From Halobacteriales archaeon (GTDB lineage Archaea > Thermoplasmatota > E2 > JACPAO01 > JAHFTW01), in the NCBI GenBank assembly GCA_020201445.1, contig JAIVGU010000261.1, positions 1-5,361 on the forward strand: DNA of 5,361 nt. Reading direction: 5' to 3'. The translations under genes and the position numbers were made by a program. Position 1 is the stretch's first letter. Every line of letters begins with the position of its first letter. The notes under the pieces are model-generated. The model was not told where the DNA came from. It saw only the letters and a list, made by a program, of their open reading frames with translations, and ran no database searches. Positions 2-5,361 of the stretch are shown here, piece after piece.

Positions 2-1150
2 CTTCTCTTCACAGAAATCTATCTGGACAGGCTCTTCCGCGACCCTAAGCAATTCGTGGCAGACATCAACACCACTCTAGACGCCTTCAACAAGGGCAAG
101 GACGGTGACGACCAGTTGCCAGGCTTCGTCCCGAGCGACCTGAACAAGGTCTGCCTTTGGATGGCGACAGGCGCCGGCAAGACGCTGCTCATGCACGTCA
201 ATATTCTTCAGTACCACCACTACCTGGCCGCCCACGGCCGCAGCGGCGAAGTGAACCGCGTCATTCTGCTCACGCCCAACGAAGGACTTTCCAACCAACA
301 CCTGGGCGACCTGCACGAATCGGGATTCACCCGAGCGGAACTCTTCCGCAAGGACAACCAGGCGCGCCTGCCCAACCTTGGCGACACGCCCATCGTGGAG
401 GTCATCGACATCCACAAACTGGACGAGGAAGAGGGCGAGAAGACGGTCGCCATCGAGTCCTTCGAGGCCAACAACCTGGTCCTCGTCGACGAAGGCCACA
501 CCGGCGCCTCAGGCGACGACTGGATGGACAAGCGTGACCGACTGTGCCTCGACGGCTTCTCCTTCGAGTACTCCGCCACGTTCGGCCAGGCCATGAAGGC
601 CAGCAAGCGCAAGAACCTCCAAGACCGCTACGCAAAGGCGGTCCTCTTGGACTACTCCTACCGCTACTTCTACGGCGACGGATACGGGAAGAACTACTGG
701 ATCCTCAACCTCGCCGGCGACGTCACGGAAGAGGTCCGCAAGACGTACCTCACCGCCTGCCTCCTTACCTTCTATGAACAGCTGCGCCTCTTCGACGACA
801 ACCGGGAAGCCGTGCGGCCTTACCGCATCGAGCGCCCGCTTCTTGTCTTCGTCGGCGGCAGCGTCAGCGCTGTCCGGACCGAAAGCAAGCGCAAGGTCTC
901 CGACGTCCTGGACATTCTCCTGTTCCTCGCTGACTTCTGCCACGACGCAACCGCCAGCAAGGCCCGTACGCCCCGGCGCTTCGCACTCTCTGCGAACAAC
1001 ACGCCGACGCCTTGGCGGTCTCCGACCGCCAGTTCGCGGAGGGGCTCTTCGACAAGATCAAACGCCCCGATTCAACGATCCAGCTCCTCATCGGCTCCAA
1101 GAAGTTCACGCAAGGCTGGAACAGCTTCCGCGTCAGCGCCCTCGGCCTGA
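2..1150 (+). CDS. Type III restriction (Res)-like SF2 helicase, N-terminal fragment (5' cut by window edge, 3' end frameshifted)
   Basis: This is the N-terminal half of a DEAD/DEAH-type SF2 helicase of the type III restriction subunit R group, which couples ATP hydrolysis to movement on DNA. The frame is open from base 2 with no stop before the edge. The GTG at 56 is not the start, because the codons before it read as conserved family sequence (FTEIYLDRLFRDP at 11-49). Visible motifs: Walker A MATGAGKT at 161-184, motif II DEGH at 488-499, motif III SAT in FEYSATFGQ at about 563-589, and the first strand of RecA domain 2, RPLLVFVGG, at 833-859. Family-like sequence ends near 960-968. From there to the TGA at 1148-1150 the frame gives low-complexity Ser/Arg/Pro/Thr-rich sequence, typical of GC-rich out-of-frame reading. 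The true continuation lies in the -1 frame (1012-2595 entry). The gene is probably the first of an operon with the ATPase downstream. Family and break are near certain; the in vivo role is inferred. Confidence 0.9.
   Translation, partial: LLFTEIYLDRLFRDPKQFVADINTTLDAFNKGKDGDDQLPGFVPSDLNKVCLWMATGAGKTLLMHVNILQYHHYLAAHGRSGEVNRVILLTPNEGLSNQHLGDLHESGFTRAELFRKDNQARLPNLGDTPIVEVIDIHKLDEEEGEKTVAIESFEANNLVLVDEGHTGASGDDWMDKRDRLCLDGFSFEYSATFGQAMKASKRKNLQDRYAKAVLLDYSYRYFYGDGYGKNYWILNLAGDVTEEVRKTYLTACLLTFYEQLRLFDDNREAVRPYRIERPLLVFVGGSVSAVRTESKRKVSDVLDILLFLADFCHDATASKARTPRRFALSANNTPTPWRSPTASSRRGSSTRSNAPIQRSSSSSAPRSSRKAGTASASAPSA
934..1011 (+). other. Frameshift junction inside the helicase gene, probably with an internal deletion
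   Basis: The helicase moves here from the frame of bases 2-1150 to the frame of 1012-2595. The downstream frame is closed by TGA at 931-933, so the switch must lie after 933. Upstream family sequence (VSDVLDILLFLADF) runs to about 940-968 in the first frame. Downstream family sequence (ALRTLCEQHADALAVSDRQF) is readable in the second frame from about 976. The net change equals loss of 3n+1 bases or gain of 3n+2. From memory of related helicases, several tens of residues normally separate these two blocks, including a short conserved stretch before the LCE motif, so I infer a deletion and not a single-base slip. No X XXY YYZ slippery heptamer was found in the overlap, so programmed -1 frameshifting is unlikely. 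A sequencing error or assembly collapse cannot be excluded. Confidence 0.8.
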
Positions 1151-2595
1151 TGAACATCGGTAGGAGCGAAGGCCCCGAAATCATCCAGCTCTTCGGGCGC
1201 GGTGTGCGCCTCCGCGGATTCAACGGAGGCCTCAAACGCAGCTCTCACGTTCGTGGGGACGGTGACCGGCCCGCCCACCTGTCACTACTCGAGACCCTCA
1301 GCATCTTCGGCGTAAAGGCCGACTACATGACGCAGTTCAAGGCGTACCTGGAGGAGGAAGGCGTCCCCGTCGAAGCCGAACCGGTCGAGTTCGTCATCCC
1401 GACGATTCGCAACCTCGACTTTGCCAAGCTCAAGACGGTGACTCTCGACGACAAGATCGACTTCGGGCGTGATGTCGAGCCCTTCGCCCTCAAACCGCCC
1501 ACCGCTGACCTGCGCGCGGCCCTCAGCGTCCGCCTCGACTGGTATCCCAGGGTGCAGAGCCTCGCAAGCGCTGGGCTCGGCGGCATCGACGCCACGGCCA
1601 ACGAAGTCCGTTTCACACCGAACGACACCGCGTTCATCGACTGGCAGGCCCTGCACTGGGCGCTCAACGACTACAAGACGGAACGCGGCCACCACAAGCT
1701 CACCATCGATCCGGCCGCACTCCAGCCCATCTTGGAGGACTCCTCGTGGTACACCCTCAAGGCGCCAGCCAACGCGCTGCGCCTGGCCGCCATGCGGGAC
1801 GCCGACGCCATCCAGGAACTTGCCACCGCCCTCCTAAAACGCTACGTGGACCGCTATTACAAGGTCCGCCGCGACCAATGGGAACGCAAGAGCCTACGCC
1901 TGGAACCCTTCGCCGAAGGCGACCCGAACATCAATGTCACTTACACGTTCCTCATCGAGGCATCCAAGACCGAACTCGTCACCAAGCTGAAGGAGCTCAA
2001 GAAACTCGTCGACAAGGGCGCCATGACCGACTTTGAGTTCGGAAACATGCGCGCCATCATGTTCGGCCGCCACCTCTACCGCCCCCTGATCCACCTCGCC
2101 AAAGGCAACATCACAGTCTCCCCGGTGGAACTCAACGTCGGCGAGCGGGACTTCGTCCTCGACCTGCGCGATTTCCACGACGCCAACCCGGCGTACTTCA
2201 AGGACGCCGAGCTTTACCTGCTGCGCAACCTCAGCCGCGGCAAGGGCATCGGGTTCTTCGAGGCAGGCAACTTCTACCCGGACTTCATCCTCTGGCTCGT
2301 CATCGGCAACACCCAGCACGTCATCTTCGTCGACCCCAAGGGCATCGCCCGCATGGACGTCGACCACCCGAAGGTTCAATTCCACGCCAAGGTCAAGGAA
2401 CTGGAAAGCCAGTTCGCAGGCCACGACGTCACGTTCGACTCCTTCATCGTGTCCGTGACGCCCTTCGCCAAGCTCGCGGGCCACTCAACCACGCGCGCCG
2501 AGTTCGCCAAACATCACGTCCTCTTCCAGCACGAGGACAAGGCAACGTACATCCAAACCATCCTGGAGACGGCACGAAAAAGCAAGGCAACCTGA
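1012..2595 (+). CDS. Type III restriction (Res)-like helicase, C-terminal fragment: RecA2 motifs V-VI plus PD-(D/E)XK nuclease domain
   Basis: This is the C-terminal half of the broken helicase. The coordinates start at a TTG only because some start is needed: homology already begins near base 976 in this frame, and no ribosome binding site precedes the TTG. Counting from there, motif V is seen as GSKKFTQGW (residues 28-36) and motif VI as QLFGRGVRL (59-67, with the arginine finger region). A long middle region of about 350 residues has no motif I can name. A C-terminal nuclease signature follows: PDF with D424, then DPKG with D441 and K443, reading as PD-(D/E)XK with Asp in the second acidic position. 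Such nucleases cleave DNA in type III Res subunits. The TGA at 2593-2595 lies one base before an ATG for the next gene, so the two are probably co-transcribed. Without the N-terminal part this fragment has no Walker A or B motif and could not hydrolyse ATP alone. Confidence 0.88.
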   Translation: MAVSDRQFAEGLFDKIKRPDSTIQLLIGSKKFTQGWNSFRVSALGLMNIGRSEGPEIIQLFGRGVRLRGFNGGLKRSSHVRGDGDRPAHLSLLETLSIFGVKADYMTQFKAYLEEEGVPVEAEPVEFVIPTIRNLDFAKLKTVTLDDKIDFGRDVEPFALKPPTADLRAALSVRLDWYPRVQSLASAGLGGIDATANEVRFTPNDTAFIDWQALHWALNDYKTERGHHKLTIDPAALQPILEDSSWYTLKAPANALRLAAMRDADAIQELATALLKRYVDRYYKVRRDQWERKSLRLEPFAEGDPNINVTYTFLIEASKTELVTKLKELKKLVDKGAMTDFEFGNMRAIMFGRHLYRPLIHLAKGNITVSPVELNVGERDFVLDLRDFHDANPAYFKDAELYLLRNLSRGKGIGFFEAGNFYPDFILWLVIGNTQHVIFVDPKGIARMDVDHPKVQFHAKVKELESQFAGHDVTFDSFIVSVTPFAKLAGHSTTRAEFAKHHVLFQHEDKATYIQTILETARKSKAT

Positions 2596-2707
2596 CATGC
2601 CAAAGGGCGCCGTTTCACTCGCCTGTGGAAAGCACATTAACAGGGATCGCGCTCCCACTGATGTGGAACAGCGCGCCCTTGCCCCGACAGACGCGCGTCC
2701 CGCACCG
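2596..2707 (+). other. Spacer or N-terminal extension between helicase and ATPase (ambiguous start region)
   Basis: These 112 bases are either the first 37 codons of the ATPase or a non-coding gap in front of its real start at 2708. By hand count, 22 of 37 codons (59%) end in G or C, compared with 33 of 40 (about 82%) just after 2708. The encoded stretch is Ala/Pro/Arg-rich and shows no domain. Both points favour non-coding or fast-evolving sequence. The one-base spacing between the helicase TGA and the 2597 ATG favours translation from 2597 by coupling. I found no convincing promoter or hairpin here. Confidence 0.4.
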
Positions 2708-4777
2708 ATGCAGCGGATCTACACCATCAAGGTCCTTGGACGGACCCTTACCCACCTCGGCACCCAGATGTACAAGAGACGAGAGGCCGCCATCGCGGAA
2801 CTCGTCGCCAACAGCTGGGACGCTGGCGCCCGCAAGGTGCGAATCTTCATCCCGGAGACCGCCTACAGCGCCGCCAAGTCGGAGATTGTGATTGAGGACA
2901 ACGGCCACGGGATGACACCCGACCAGGTCCAGGACGACTACCTCGTGGTGGCGCGAAACAGGCGCAAGGGCGGCAAGGACACGGTCGATGCGGTCCTGGA
3001 GGACTTCATCGACGATGCCGATGCGGACGAAGAAGTGCCCGCTGGCGACGAAGCCCCGGCAGACCCGGACCAAGGCGACCAAGCCTCCACGGCGCCCAGG
3101 CCCATCATGGGCCGCAAGGGAATCGGCAAGCTCGCCGGCTTCGGTCTGGCAAAGCGCGTGAGGGTCCGCACATGGACGGGCGGCCAAAGCGTTACCTTCG
3201 AGATCGACGGCGCCTCACTCGAAGCCGGCGACAACGAAGCCAAGGATTTCTCCTTCACCGGCACGCTTGGCGACGCGAAGGGCGAATCAACCCCCTCCGG
3301 AACGCGGGTCGTCCTCTCGGGCCTGAAACACAAGACGCCGCTCGACAAGGAACGCCTCCGGCAGAGCCTCGCGCGCCGCTTCAGCCGGCGCGTGCGCGGC
3401 CAGATGGAAATCACTGTCAACGGCACCCCGCTGGAAGACCCGACCCCAACGCTCCGCCTCCGCCACCCTCCACAAGGCATGGTTGAGGAAACCCTGGAAG
3501 ACGGGAACACTGTGCGCTACTGGTATGGCTTCGCAGAATCCTCGATCGGGGCGCGCGAACAACGCGGCTTCACGATTATGGTCCGCGGCCGGACCGCGCA
3601 ATCGCCGCCCTACTTCTTCGATGTCGAGGGAACCGCAACCGGCCAGCACAGCACGCGCTACGTCGTCGGCGACATCGAAGCCGACTACCTGGACAAGAGC
3701 ATCGACGCTGACGACGTCATCTCCACCGACCGCCAGGAGGTCGACTGGGACGACGAATCCGTCAAGGCCCTCAAGGCCTGGGGAGAGAAGCTCGCGCGCA
3801 AGTGCCTCGCCGACTGCGCTAAAAAAATGGGCGAAGACCTTCACAACGCCCTGCTGGAAGACGCCGACTTCAAGGGGCGGCTCGACCGGTTGGACGACTC
3901 GTCCAGGAAGCGGGCGACCCAATTCCTCATCCTGCTTGGACAGAACCGAGAACGGGTCGACGATAGCACGCGCGGGCTGGCCGACCGGGTCCTGCAGGCC
4001 TTCGAGTACCGTCACTTCCACGATGTCATCGGCGAACTGGAAGAGGCCGTCAAGGAAGACCCGGCCCAACTCGAAACCATCCTCACGGCCCTAGACCAGT
4101 GGTCCGTCATCGAGGGTCGAGCCATGCACGAAATCATGGAGGGTCGCCTGTTCATCATCGACAAGTTCCGGGCCATGATTCTCGAAGGCGCCCCCGAGAC
4201 GGCCCCCGCGGTCGGGATTTCCAATATGCACGATCTCCTTGCTCGGTTCCCTTGGCTCCTGCGGCCCCGCTGGACCGTCATCCGGGAGGAGAAATCGGTC
4301 TCCAAGACGCTCAAGGAATGGGCGTCCAAGGATGACGGCGGCAACCCGTTGGAACGCTACGATTTCTTGGCGTTGGAGAGTGAATCGCTGCTCGTCGTCA
4401 TCGAGATTAAGGCGCCCGGGCACGCCGTAGCCTACACCGAGGTTGAACGGTTGGACCGTTACCAAGAGCGCCTCGCCAAGGGGCTTGCGAAACCCGTGAA
4501 GGCGGTCCTCGTCCACGGGGGCACCCTGGACCTCAGCCCTCAGAAGATGGAGGAACTGAAGGCGCGCCGCGACCTTACCCTGCTGACTTGGGGCGAACTG
4601 TTTGCCGAGGCGCGGAGCCACTACGCCCCGTTCGCAGGAATCGTTTCCGGCGACGCGCAGTCGCCGGAGTCCGCTGCGCTCGCCAGCGACCTCGCAGAGA
4701 TCCGTGAGGTCAAGCGGACAGGCAGCGTGTACCGGGGAACCGAGGCGCGGAAAGAAGCCAGGGAAAAATCAGCCTGA
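2597..4777 (+). CDS. GHKL (MORC/MutL-like) ATPase fused to C-terminal PD-(D/E)XK nuclease-like domain
   Basis: Predicted 726-residue cytoplasmic ATPase-nuclease. The Bergerat ATP-binding fold is clear: N box AIAELVANSWDA (E68 likely general base, N72 likely Mg ligand), then IEDNGHGMT (D101, G103, G105), then MGRKGIGKLAGFG (171-183), the ATP-lid glycine motif in the form typical of bacterial MORC-like proteins. An acidic segment (about 127-161) lies inside the lid. The middle region is mostly helical and ends in a PWLLRP stretch before the C-terminal domain. There, D589 in YDFLALES and E603/K605 in VVIEIKAPG form D-X13-EXK, a PD-(D/E)XK nuclease signature resembling DUF4263/Shedu-type domains. 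Family knowledge says GHKL ATPases dimerise as ATP-driven clamps; coupling to DNA cutting is inferred. The start could instead be the ATG at 2708 (M38), where conserved-looking sequence (RIYTIKVLGR) begins and codon bias becomes typical. Neither ATG has a good Shine-Dalgarno. No signal peptide or membrane segment is seen. Confidence 0.88.
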   Translation: MPKGAVSLACGKHINRDRAPTDVEQRALAPTDARPAPMQRIYTIKVLGRTLTHLGTQMYKRREAAIAELVANSWDAGARKVRIFIPETAYSAAKSEIVIEDNGHGMTPDQVQDDYLVVARNRRKGGKDTVDAVLEDFIDDADADEEVPAGDEAPADPDQGDQASTAPRPIMGRKGIGKLAGFGLAKRVRVRTWTGGQSVTFEIDGASLEAGDNEAKDFSFTGTLGDAKGESTPSGTRVVLSGLKHKTPLDKERLRQSLARRFSRRVRGQMEITVNGTPLEDPTPTLRLRHPPQGMVEETLEDGNTVRYWYGFAESSIGAREQRGFTIMVRGRTAQSPPYFFDVEGTATGQHSTRYVVGDIEADYLDKSIDADDVISTDRQEVDWDDESVKALKAWGEKLARKCLADCAKKMGEDLHNALLEDADFKGRLDRLDDSSRKRATQFLILLGQNRERVDDSTRGLADRVLQAFEYRHFHDVIGELEEAVKEDPAQLETILTALDQWSVIEGRAMHEIMEGRLFIIDKFRAMILEGAPETAPAVGISNMHDLLARFPWLLRPRWTVIREEKSVSKTLKEWASKDDGGNPLERYDFLALESESLLVVIEIKAPGHAVAYTEVERLDRYQERLAKGLAKPVKAVLVHGGTLDLSPQKMEELKARRDLTLLTWGELFAEARSHYAPFAGIVSGDAQSPESAALASDLAEIREVKRTGSVYRGTEARKEAREKSA

Positions 4778-4838
4778 GACAACAGCGGAAGCACGCCTCG
4801 CTTTCTCCCGAACTCCTGCAGGCCTTGTCGACGCAGGT
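4778..4838. other. Convergent intergenic gap between ATPase and vsr
   Basis: This 61-bp gap lies between the ATPase stop (TGA at 4775-4777) and the vsr stop (TAG, read on the minus strand from 4841 to 4839). The only inverted repeat seen is CCTGC at 4815-4819 with GCAGG at 4833-4837. It has a 13-base loop and no T-tract on either side, so it is not a convincing intrinsic terminator. The tight tail-to-tail spacing means transcripts of the two units may overlap unless Rho or another mechanism stops them. Confidence 0.6.
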
Positions 4839-5276
4839 CTAGACTTCATTCTCGGGCGTCGCCCTGCCGAGTGCAACCGTCACCCTGGCCGCGGCACGAC
4901 CGGGGCTCCGCGCGATGTCGCACTCCCAAATCTGGACGACGCGCCACCCCCCGTTCCGCAGTTCCTTCAGCACGACTTGGCGCCGGCCGCGGTTCGCCGC
5001 CAGTTTGGCATCCCAAAATGCCTGCCGGCTCGCTGGTCGCGCGTAGTGCTTGGGGCATCCGTGCCAGAAACAGCCGTCCAGGAAGACCGCCACCCGTTTC
5101 CCTTTGTGGCTGATGTCGGGCCGGCCAGGGACGCTTCTGTCGTGCGTCCGATATCGGAGCCCCGCCGCCCACACCCGGGCTCGGACCGCGCGTTCAGGTC
5201 CGGTATCGCGGCCGCGCACCCGCGACATGATGCGGCTGCGCACGGCAGGGCCGAAGGGGTCAGGCACGCTGCGCAT
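4839..5276 (-). CDS. vsr: Very short patch repair endonuclease (Vsr)
   Basis: This is a 145-residue protein, close to the usual size for Vsr. Vsr nicks DNA 5' to the T of T:G mismatches made when 5-methylcytosine deaminates, starting repair that restores the methylated site. Family marks in order: RSRIMSRVRGRDTGPE (13-28; E28 corresponds to an active-site Glu), LRYRTH (40-45), VPGRPDI with the catalytic Asp at D54, FLDGCFWHGCPKH (65-77; C69, H72, C74 and H77 in the metal-site and active-site cluster), FW..K..AN (87-95), and GWRVVQIWEC (110-119, with C119 as a likely zinc ligand). At the position of E. coli His64 there is D67, a variant I recall from many Vsr homologues. The first ATG is preferred because the usual short leader before RSR..S is complete with it. 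No Shine-Dalgarno is visible. The start lies inside the 3' end of the upstream dcm frame, so translation is probably coupled to it. Confidence 0.95.
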   Translation of the reverse strand: MRSVPDPFGPAVRSRIMSRVRGRDTGPERAVRARVWAAGLRYRTHDRSVPGRPDISHKGKRVAVFLDGCFWHGCPKHYARPASRQAFWDAKLAANRGRRQVVLKELRNGGWRVVQIWECDIARSPGRAAARVTVALGRATPENEV

Positions 5277-5361
5277 TCTGGATATGGGTTACAAGAGGGT
5301 TTGCAAGCCGGCTAATGAGGCGCGTCGGGAGCGCGTTGCCAATCATGGTCGCCGCCAGATA
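5260..5361 (-). CDS. dcm: DNA cytosine-5 methyltransferase (Dcm type), C-terminal end only (cut by window edge)
   Basis: On the minus strand, a frame open from the right edge (first codon TAT at 5361-5359) runs 33 codons to TGA at 5262-5260. It contains AATMIGNALPTRLISRLA, which fits motif X of C5 DNA methyltransferases: a GN(A/S)xP core followed by a helix, located at the extreme C-terminus as expected. Motif X packs against the AdoMet-binding site. The catalytic PC motif and target recognition domain lie outside the window, so the target sequence cannot be inferred. The last 17 bases overlap the start of vsr, which is read in the +1 register relative to this frame. Dcm-Vsr pairs are a standard combination and E. 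coli shows a similar overlap, which supports the call. The length is short but motif, frame, position and neighbour all agree. Confidence 0.82.
   Translation of the reverse strand, partial: YLAATMIGNALPTRLISRLANPLVTHIQNAQRA

What the first reader, a model, noticed from the sequence alone, without database searches (positions are those of the whole stretch)
2..5361. Composite system: Dcm + Vsr facing a MORC-like ATPase-nuclease and a helicase-nuclease
Seen: four adjacent genes encode a C5 methylase end, Vsr, a GHKL ATPase with a PD-(D/E)XK tail, and a Res-like helicase with its own PD-(D/E)XK tail. Known: Iyer, Abhiman and Aravind (2008) predicted restriction-modification systems built from MORC/MutL-like GHKL ATPases, SF2 helicases, C5 methylases and Vsr. 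Inferred: this locus is one such system, with Dcm/Vsr as the self-marking and repair arm and the convergent operon as the restriction arm. The mechanism of the arm, and whether the ATPase clamp loads or activates the helicase-nuclease, is to my knowledge little characterised.
Basis: partly seen in the sequence, partly recalled or inferred. Interest (0 to 1): 0.75.

Follow-up and report, generated by a model that had tools for sequence, protein, structure and literature searches.

The report
Two neighbouring restriction systems, one broken
This bacterial DNA holds a restriction unit built from a methylase, a repair enzyme and an ATP-powered DNA cutter, lying beside the broken tail of what is most likely a different restriction system, so the four genes look like neighbours and not one new machine.

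Summary
All four gene pieces are real: a C5-methylase tail (33 residues), Vsr, a GHKL ATPase with a PD-(D/E)XK tail, and a Res-type helicase. The helicase is worse than frameshifted: 75-98 residues present in 12 of 12 compared relatives are missing and the frame changes.

The one-system reading fails its own test. Around 154 ATPase relatives (80 genome loci, the best 80 of 426; 74 viral loci) a C5 methylase is present in 141, Vsr in 55, this helicase in 0. Around 39 helicase relatives the ATPase and Vsr are in 0 and C5 in 1, while a Type III-like adenine methylase lies upstream in 30; eight of the other nine have under 1.6 kb of upstream sequence. So the helicase is most likely the Res subunit of a separate Type III-like Mod-Res system. 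ATPase, Vsr and C5 methylase form their own restriction-modification unit, distantly related to the BbrUII/HgiDII family and fitting the 'paraMORC3' class predicted in 2008.

Likely mechanism: the C5 enzyme marks self, Vsr repairs T:G mismatches, and an ATP-driven GHKL clamp lets its nuclease domain cut unmarked DNA. New member of a known kind. The neighbourhoods of the window's nearest kin could not be seen.

The parts
2..946 (+). helicase (Type III Res-like), N-terminal part with the first RecA-like domain; open at the window edge
   Evidence: PF04851 E 7.3e-10; PADLOC REase_III PDLC03654 E 1.4e-81; tblastn of relatives
946..970 (+). junction where 75-98 residues found in relatives are missing and the reading frame changes (deletion in the organism or assembly error)
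   Evidence: 12 of 12 relatives compared; alignment A2
970..2595 (+). helicase, C-terminal part, with the conserved PD...DxK pattern (putative nuclease tail)
   Evidence: PADLOC REase_III E 1.3e-87; pattern invariant in 21 rows
2708..4777 (+). GHKL ATPase with C-terminal PD-(D/E)XK domain, probable restriction subunit (other possible starts 2597, 2663)
   Evidence: PF13589; NF050001 BbrUII/HgiDII family 227 bits, below the cut-off of 550; alignment A1; model pLDDT 78.3
4226..4657 (+). PD-(D/E)XK nuclease domain of the ATPase, residues about 507-650
   Evidence: model of the C-terminal 196 residues, pLDDT 85.0; Foldseek 2vld (NucS) E 6.5e-5, 5gke (EndoMS), 4f0p (MspJI)
4839..5276 (-). Vsr mismatch endonuclease, 145 aa
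   Evidence: TIGR00632 127.4 bits, above its cut-off; PF03852 E 8.6e-26
5260..5361 (-). last 33 codons and stop of a C5 cytosine methylase, open at the window edge, overlapping the vsr start
   Evidence: translation; short matches to C5 methylases of related loci

Best explanation
The window holds parts of two separate restriction-modification systems. (i) A C5 methylase - Vsr - GHKL ATPase/PD-(D/E)XK unit of the paraMORC3 kind, related at a distance to the BbrUII/HgiDII restriction enzymes. The methylase marks self sites, Vsr repairs T:G mismatches left by deamination of 5-methylcytosine, and the ATPase-nuclease restricts unmarked DNA: like MutL, Hsp90 and MORC it would dimerise and close on ATP as a clamp around or across DNA, and this would place or license two PD-(D/E)XK domains for cleavage. 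(ii) The 3' end of a Type III-like Mod-Res operon whose Res gene carries an internal deletion and is probably non-functional in this copy; its Mod gene would lie upstream of the window. Shown: gene content, conserved synteny of unit (i), the Mod partnership of the helicase's relatives, the fold of the nuclease domain (by model). Inferred: all biochemistry, the clamp step, ATP dependence, methylation sensitivity, and that the helicase has no role in unit (i).
For: C5 methylase in 14 of 17 close genome loci, 57 of 63 wider genome loci and 70 of 74 viral loci; Vsr in 10, 32 and 13; the helicase model in 0, 0 and 0. Close relatives come from many phyla by their record titles. Distances of ATPase and neighbouring C5 methylase correlate over 56 loci (r 0.48, 0 of 2000 permutations as high; close set of 11, r 0.48, 17 of 2000). 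Helicase relatives: an adenine methylase (PF01555 in two of two examined with Pfam, PADLOC MTase_III in four of four examined) lies upstream on the same strand in 30 of 39 loci, with gaps from overlap to 2.3 kb, and a DrmD-like SNF2 helicase is in 13; ATPase 0, Vsr 0, C5 1. Genome co-occurrence: 1 of 17 close-ATPase genomes has the helicase; in 246 genomes of one phylum 9 have the helicase, 4 the ATPase, none both; in 199 of another, 4 and 4, one both, with the genes at least 0.79 Mb apart. Nuclease fold. GHKL and nuclease residues intact.
Against: Helicase and ATPase lie on one strand with at most 112 nt between them and no terminator-like site was found there, so they could be co-transcribed. 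The closest relatives by sequence (P0002, 86%; P0003, 54%) are metagenomic and their neighbourhoods could not be seen. Other kinds of helicase do lie near several close relatives. In L015 an unrelated Type III-like Res-Mod pair stands directly upstream of the ATPase on the same strand. Three of 17 close loci lack a detectable C5 methylase (L007, L009, L014; L007 and L014 are cut short upstream by contig ends). The genome co-occurrence tallies are too small to be decisive alone. The active-site lysine is replaced in part of the wider family (alignment A3).
Confidence: 0.8

Rival explanations
1. One composite four-gene system: Dcm and Vsr mark and repair self, and the ATPase clamp and the helicase-nuclease together restrict.
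For: Same-strand adjacency of helicase and ATPase; other helicases near some close relatives; the 2008 prediction that such ATPases work with SFII helicases.
Against: This helicase in 0 of 154 ATPase loci, the ATPase in 0 of 39 helicase loci, which mostly have their own adenine methylase; 1 of 17 genomes co-holds them, unlinked. This copy of the helicase is broken.
Confidence: 0.07
2. Recent merger (a form of the best explanation, not an alternative to it): in the window's own small clade the ATPase-C5-Vsr unit was inserted behind a Type III Res and shares its transcript, without functional coupling.
For: Short gap and one strand; L015 (Res-Mod then ATPase-C5) and L013 (ATPase-C5 between HmaB and HmaC) show such arrangements.
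Against: Transcription untested; no promoter-like or terminator-like site was found, but the scan has little power here (0 found; 0.3 and 2.8 expected by chance).
Confidence: 0.3
3. The ATPase-nuclease is a Shedu-like effector that senses phage and is not methylation-guided; the Dcm-Vsr pair is an unrelated neighbour.
For: Same architecture as VcSduA, a Shedu protein with N-terminal GHKL and C-terminal PD-(D/E)XK domains (PMC12137116, passages); SduA among the PDB matches at rank 11.
Against: C5 methylase within 300 nt of the ATPase ORF in 121 of 154 loci and correlated divergence; the best NCBIfam match is a restriction enzyme family.
Confidence: 0.05

Closest known systems
BbrUII/HgiDII family restriction enzymes (NCBIfam NF050001)
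   Same: Match of the ATPase-nuclease (227 bits, E 4e-67); a C5 methylase partner (M.HgiDII and M.BbrUII are 5mC methylases, M.HgiDII recognising GTCGAC: passages of PMC5867850).
   Different: Far below the family cut-off of 550 bits, so not an equivalog; recognition site unknown.
paraMORC3 family of Iyer, Abhiman and Aravind 2008 (PMC2292703)
   Same: GHKL plus S5-like module with a C-terminal restriction-endonuclease-fold domain carrying E-D-ExK; neighbourhoods with cytosine methylase and Vsr.
   Different: The paper's individual sequences were not compared here; its helicase link is not seen for this helicase family.
Type III restriction-modification (Mod-Res)
   Same: The helicase matches PADLOC REase_III, and its relatives mostly sit behind a Type III-like Mod.
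   Different: A third of the fetched operons show an added DrmD-like SNF2 helicase; the window's Mod end lies outside, and this Res copy has a deletion.
VcSduA, Shedu with GHKL N-terminal domain (PMC12137116, passages)
   Same: GHKL ATPase and PD-(D/E)XK nuclease in one chain.
   Different: A Shedu (DUF4263) nuclease, described there as a Shedu defence protein; the window protein goes with a methylase and Vsr.
CglI and NgoAVII, ATP-dependent restriction enzymes (recalled, not looked up)
   Same: A C5 methylase with an ATP-driven restriction complex.
   Different: As recalled they use a PLD nuclease with a separate SF2 ATPase subunit, not GHKL.

Membership tests
paraMORC3 | GHKL ATPase motifs intact | tested here: met
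   four motifs present; key residues invariant in 31 of 31 rows
paraMORC3 | S5-fold domain after the GHKL domain | tested here: met
   by predicted structure only: the model aligns over more than 400 columns with MORC3/MORC4 ATPase modules and TRAP1, TM by target about 0.5-0.6 for MORC3/MORC4
paraMORC3 | C-terminal restriction-endonuclease-fold domain with E-D-ExK | tested here: met
   E527/E528, D552, E566, K568; NucS/EndoMS and MspJI fold matches
MORC (strict) | GhXhhpXXRhl motif in the S5 domain | tested here: not met
   0 of 31 rows of A1; 2 of 154 ATPase ORFs in L003-L156, against about 1% in shuffles of the window protein
BbrUII/HgiDII equivalog | score above the NF050001 cut-off (550 bits) | tested here: not met
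   227.2 bits; ten relatives score 169-362
BbrUII/HgiDII equivalog | cuts GTCGAC, blocked by C5 methylation | not testable with these tools
   needs a bench assay
Vsr | score above the TIGR00632 cut-off | tested here: met
   127.4 against 97.85 bits
Type III RM, Res subunit | ResIII helicase of a Res family | tested here: met
   PF04851 and PDLC03654
Type III RM, Res subunit | adjacent Mod methylase | tested here: inconclusive
   outside the window; upstream in 30 of 39 relatives
Type III RM, Res subunit | complete reading frame | tested here: not met
   75-98 residues missing and the frame changed
one composite Dcm-Vsr-ATPase-helicase system | recurrent co-occurrence of ATPase and this helicase | tested here: not met
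   0 of 154 and 0 of 39 loci; 1 of 17 genomes, unlinked

The most novel reading that the evidence does not exclude
The ATPase-C5-Vsr unit is a plug-in that settles next to, or inside, other methylation-based ATP-dependent defence operons (here a Type III Res; in L015 a Type III Res-Mod pair; in L013 between HmaB and HmaC) and works with the host system's helicase, so that one GHKL clamp serves several restriction engines.
Probability: 0.08. Interest if true: 0.65.

Novelty: new member of a known kind. Interest (0 to 1): 0.3.

Why it matters
It separates two systems that adjacency alone suggests are one. It also gives a clean three-gene target (C5 methylase, Vsr, GHKL ATPase-nuclease; wide phyletic spread, intact motifs) for asking how a MutL/MORC-type clamp drives restriction, perhaps without a helicase. 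In what I saw from my searches (listings, passages, and parts 1-3 of 4 of one paper) there was no biochemical study of the restriction subunit of this family; most subscription journals are not held there.

Tried and rejected
Own genome: none is held, so host, the rest of the methylase and the upstream Mod gene stay unknown. Solved structures by sequence: nothing useful for the ATPase (MutL at E 0.8) or either helicase half. PADLOC 'MzaB' for the ATPase: weak (E 0.003), rejected. MORC proper: rejected on the motif. A simple frameshift of the helicase: rejected in favour of a deletion with change of frame; an assembly error cannot be excluded. Shedu: architecture alike, context differs. GC content does not separate the units clearly (helicase parts 0.61 and 0.62, ATPase 0.64, Vsr 0.69). 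Promoter and terminator scan: nothing found. Plasmid search: 32 records with ATPase relatives, all under 60% identical; neighbourhoods not read. The two viral loci holding a helicase relative (L157, L158) have no ATPase, C5 or Vsr hit, and no Mod hit; they are not in the count of 39. C-terminal extension of some ATPases: no Pfam match there in the two scanned.

Limits of the counts. ATPase loci are the best 80 of 426 genome relatives and the 74 viral loci; some viral loci look near-identical, and many loci are cut by contig ends (mean flanking sequence in all about 15-17 kb). L001 and L002 were left out; L001 and L099 are one contig. C5 ORFs were found with four C5 sequences taken from L003, L005, L010 and L013, so those four are positive by construction. 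Helicase loci are 39 of 43 places found; two fragments in G812 and two extra fragments in G1118 were not fetched. The Mod model was built from nine of the first 11 loci; the other 28 loci are independent of it, and 20 of them have Mod. Neighbours of close loci were annotated selectively (25 ORFs in 14 of 19 close loci).
Full report
What is in the window. The window runs, on +, from the inside of a Res-type helicase (2..2595) to a GHKL ATPase (2708..4777; earlier starts at 2597 and 2663 are possible), and, on - and convergent with them, from the tail of a C5 methylase to Vsr (5361..4839). Family matches: PF04851 and PADLOC REase_III for the helicase; PF13589 and, below its cut-off, NCBIfam NF050001 (BbrUII/HgiDII family restriction enzyme) for the ATPase; PF03852 and TIGR00632 for Vsr. 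The methylase tail is too short for a family match; it was identified by its IGNALP stretch, which matches C5 methylases of related loci.

The helicase is broken. Twelve relatives aligned by tblastn match the window up to nt 940-997 and again from nt 970-988, with 75-98 of their own residues unmatched between. So a stretch between the two RecA-like parts is missing and the frame changes there. Whether this is a deletion in the organism or an assembly error cannot be told from one contig.

The ATPase-nuclease. Alignment A1 (31 sequences, the others 46-88% identical to the window) shows all GHKL motifs and E527/E528, D552 and E566-x-K568 invariant. A model of the whole protein (pLDDT 78.3) matches TRAP1/Hsp90 and MORC3/MORC4/MORC2 in the PDB. 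A model of the C-terminal 196 residues (pLDDT 85.0, pTM 0.82) matches NucS (2vld, E 6.5e-5), EndoMS (5gke), MspJI (4f0p) and, lower, SduA (8ps5). The MORC-specific motif given by Iyer and colleagues is absent in 31 of 31 rows. The protein therefore fits their paraMORC3 description (GHKL, S5, C-terminal nuclease with E-D-ExK) and not MORC proper. In more distant relatives the active-site lysine is replaced in several sequences (alignment A3), so not every member need be an active nuclease of the same chemistry.

What goes with the ATPase. In 17 close genome loci (39-45% identical), 63 wider genome loci and 74 viral loci, a C5 methylase lies in 14, 57 and 70, within 300 nt of the ATPase ORF in 11, 45 and 65, and Vsr in 10, 32 and 13. 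A profile of the helicase finds nothing at E 1e-3 in the ORFs of any of these loci. The close loci come from records named Chloroflexi, Hymenobacter, Thermoanaerobaculia, Nitrospirae, Streptomyces and other actinobacteria, Phycisphaerae, Spartobacteria, Synergistaceae, Acidobacteria, Lentisphaerae and others. ATPase and C5 distances correlate over 56 loci (r 0.48; none of 2000 permutations as high), though shared descent alone adds to this. With 0 of 154, the 95% upper bound for this helicase is about 2% (rule of three, treating loci as independent, which they are not fully); for the 19 close loci (17 genome, 2 viral) it is about 15%.

What goes with the helicase. Helicase relatives were sought in 17 close-ATPase genomes and in samples of five phyla: 1 of 17, 9 of 246, 4 of 199, 4 of 201, 8 of 246 and 13 of 247 genomes have one (the phylum samples include their centre genomes). 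In 39 fetched loci a Type III-like adenine methylase lies upstream on the same strand in 30, with gaps from overlap to 2.3 kb. Of the nine without, eight have under 1.6 kb of upstream sequence and one (L200) has 6.5 kb without it. A DrmD-like SNF2 helicase is in 13. The ATPase is in 0, Vsr in 0, a C5 methylase in 1 (L203, behind a TnpB-like gene). PADLOC names the methylase MTase_III (four of four examined) and gives DrmD as best match of the upstream protein (three of three examined). So the helicase is most likely the Res of a Type III-like operon.

Whole genomes. One of 17 genomes with a close ATPase also has the helicase: G004, with two copies, at least 0.79 Mb from its ATPase. In 246 genomes of one phylum 9 have the helicase, 4 the ATPase and none both; in 199 of another, 4 have each and only G004 both. 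These numbers are small and by themselves would not exclude a link.

How it probably works. From the families involved (established knowledge, recalled): the C5 methylase protects host sites; Vsr nicks at T:G mismatches that arise when 5-methylcytosine deaminates, for repair; the GHKL module dimerises on ATP binding, as in MutL, Hsp90 and MORC, and closes on DNA; and the paired nuclease domains cut DNA that lacks the mark. Which part reads the site is unknown; the S5 part and the helical stretch (residues about 350-492 in the model) are the candidates. This chain is inference. HgiDII and BbrUII show that C5 partners of this kind exist: M.HgiDII methylates GTCGAC and M.BbrUII is a 5mC methylase (passages of PMC5867850).

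Novelty. The protein architecture and its neighbours were predicted in 2008, and the restriction family has a curated model. The window adds a divergent member. The mechanism of the family remains open as far as my searches show. I score it modestly.

Noticed in passing
L013:3349-17217: A complete Hma set (HmaA, HmaB, HmaC by PADLOC) is split by an ATPase-C5 pair sitting between HmaB and HmaC, with Vsr after HmaC.
   Followed up: partly
L015:4231-16691: Order ResIII, Type III-like Mod, ATPase, C5, UvrD helicase with PD-(D/E)XK, Vsr, all on one strand.
   Followed up: partly
L059, L064, L065, L069, L072, L079: Six wider genome loci hold two ATPase-nuclease genes with a C5 methylase in the same locus, perhaps a heterodimeric restriction enzyme.
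   Followed up: no
P0026, P0096, P0101: ATPase relatives of 839-863 aa with an extra C-terminal region of very roughly 170-190 residues; no Pfam match there in P0026 and P0096.
   Followed up: partly
L174-L184, L199-L206, L231-L248, L211, L223: The Type III-like Mod-Res operon carries a DrmD-like SNF2 helicase nearby in 13 of 39 loci (many are cut short), a possible hybrid of Type III and DISARM parts.
   Followed up: partly
L083-L156: 74 loci from the viral contig collection encode ATPase relatives, 70 of them with a C5 methylase; they may be prophages or misassigned contigs.
   Followed up: no
L017:1108-3307: The ATPase of this close relative is split over two overlapping reading frames.
   Followed up: no
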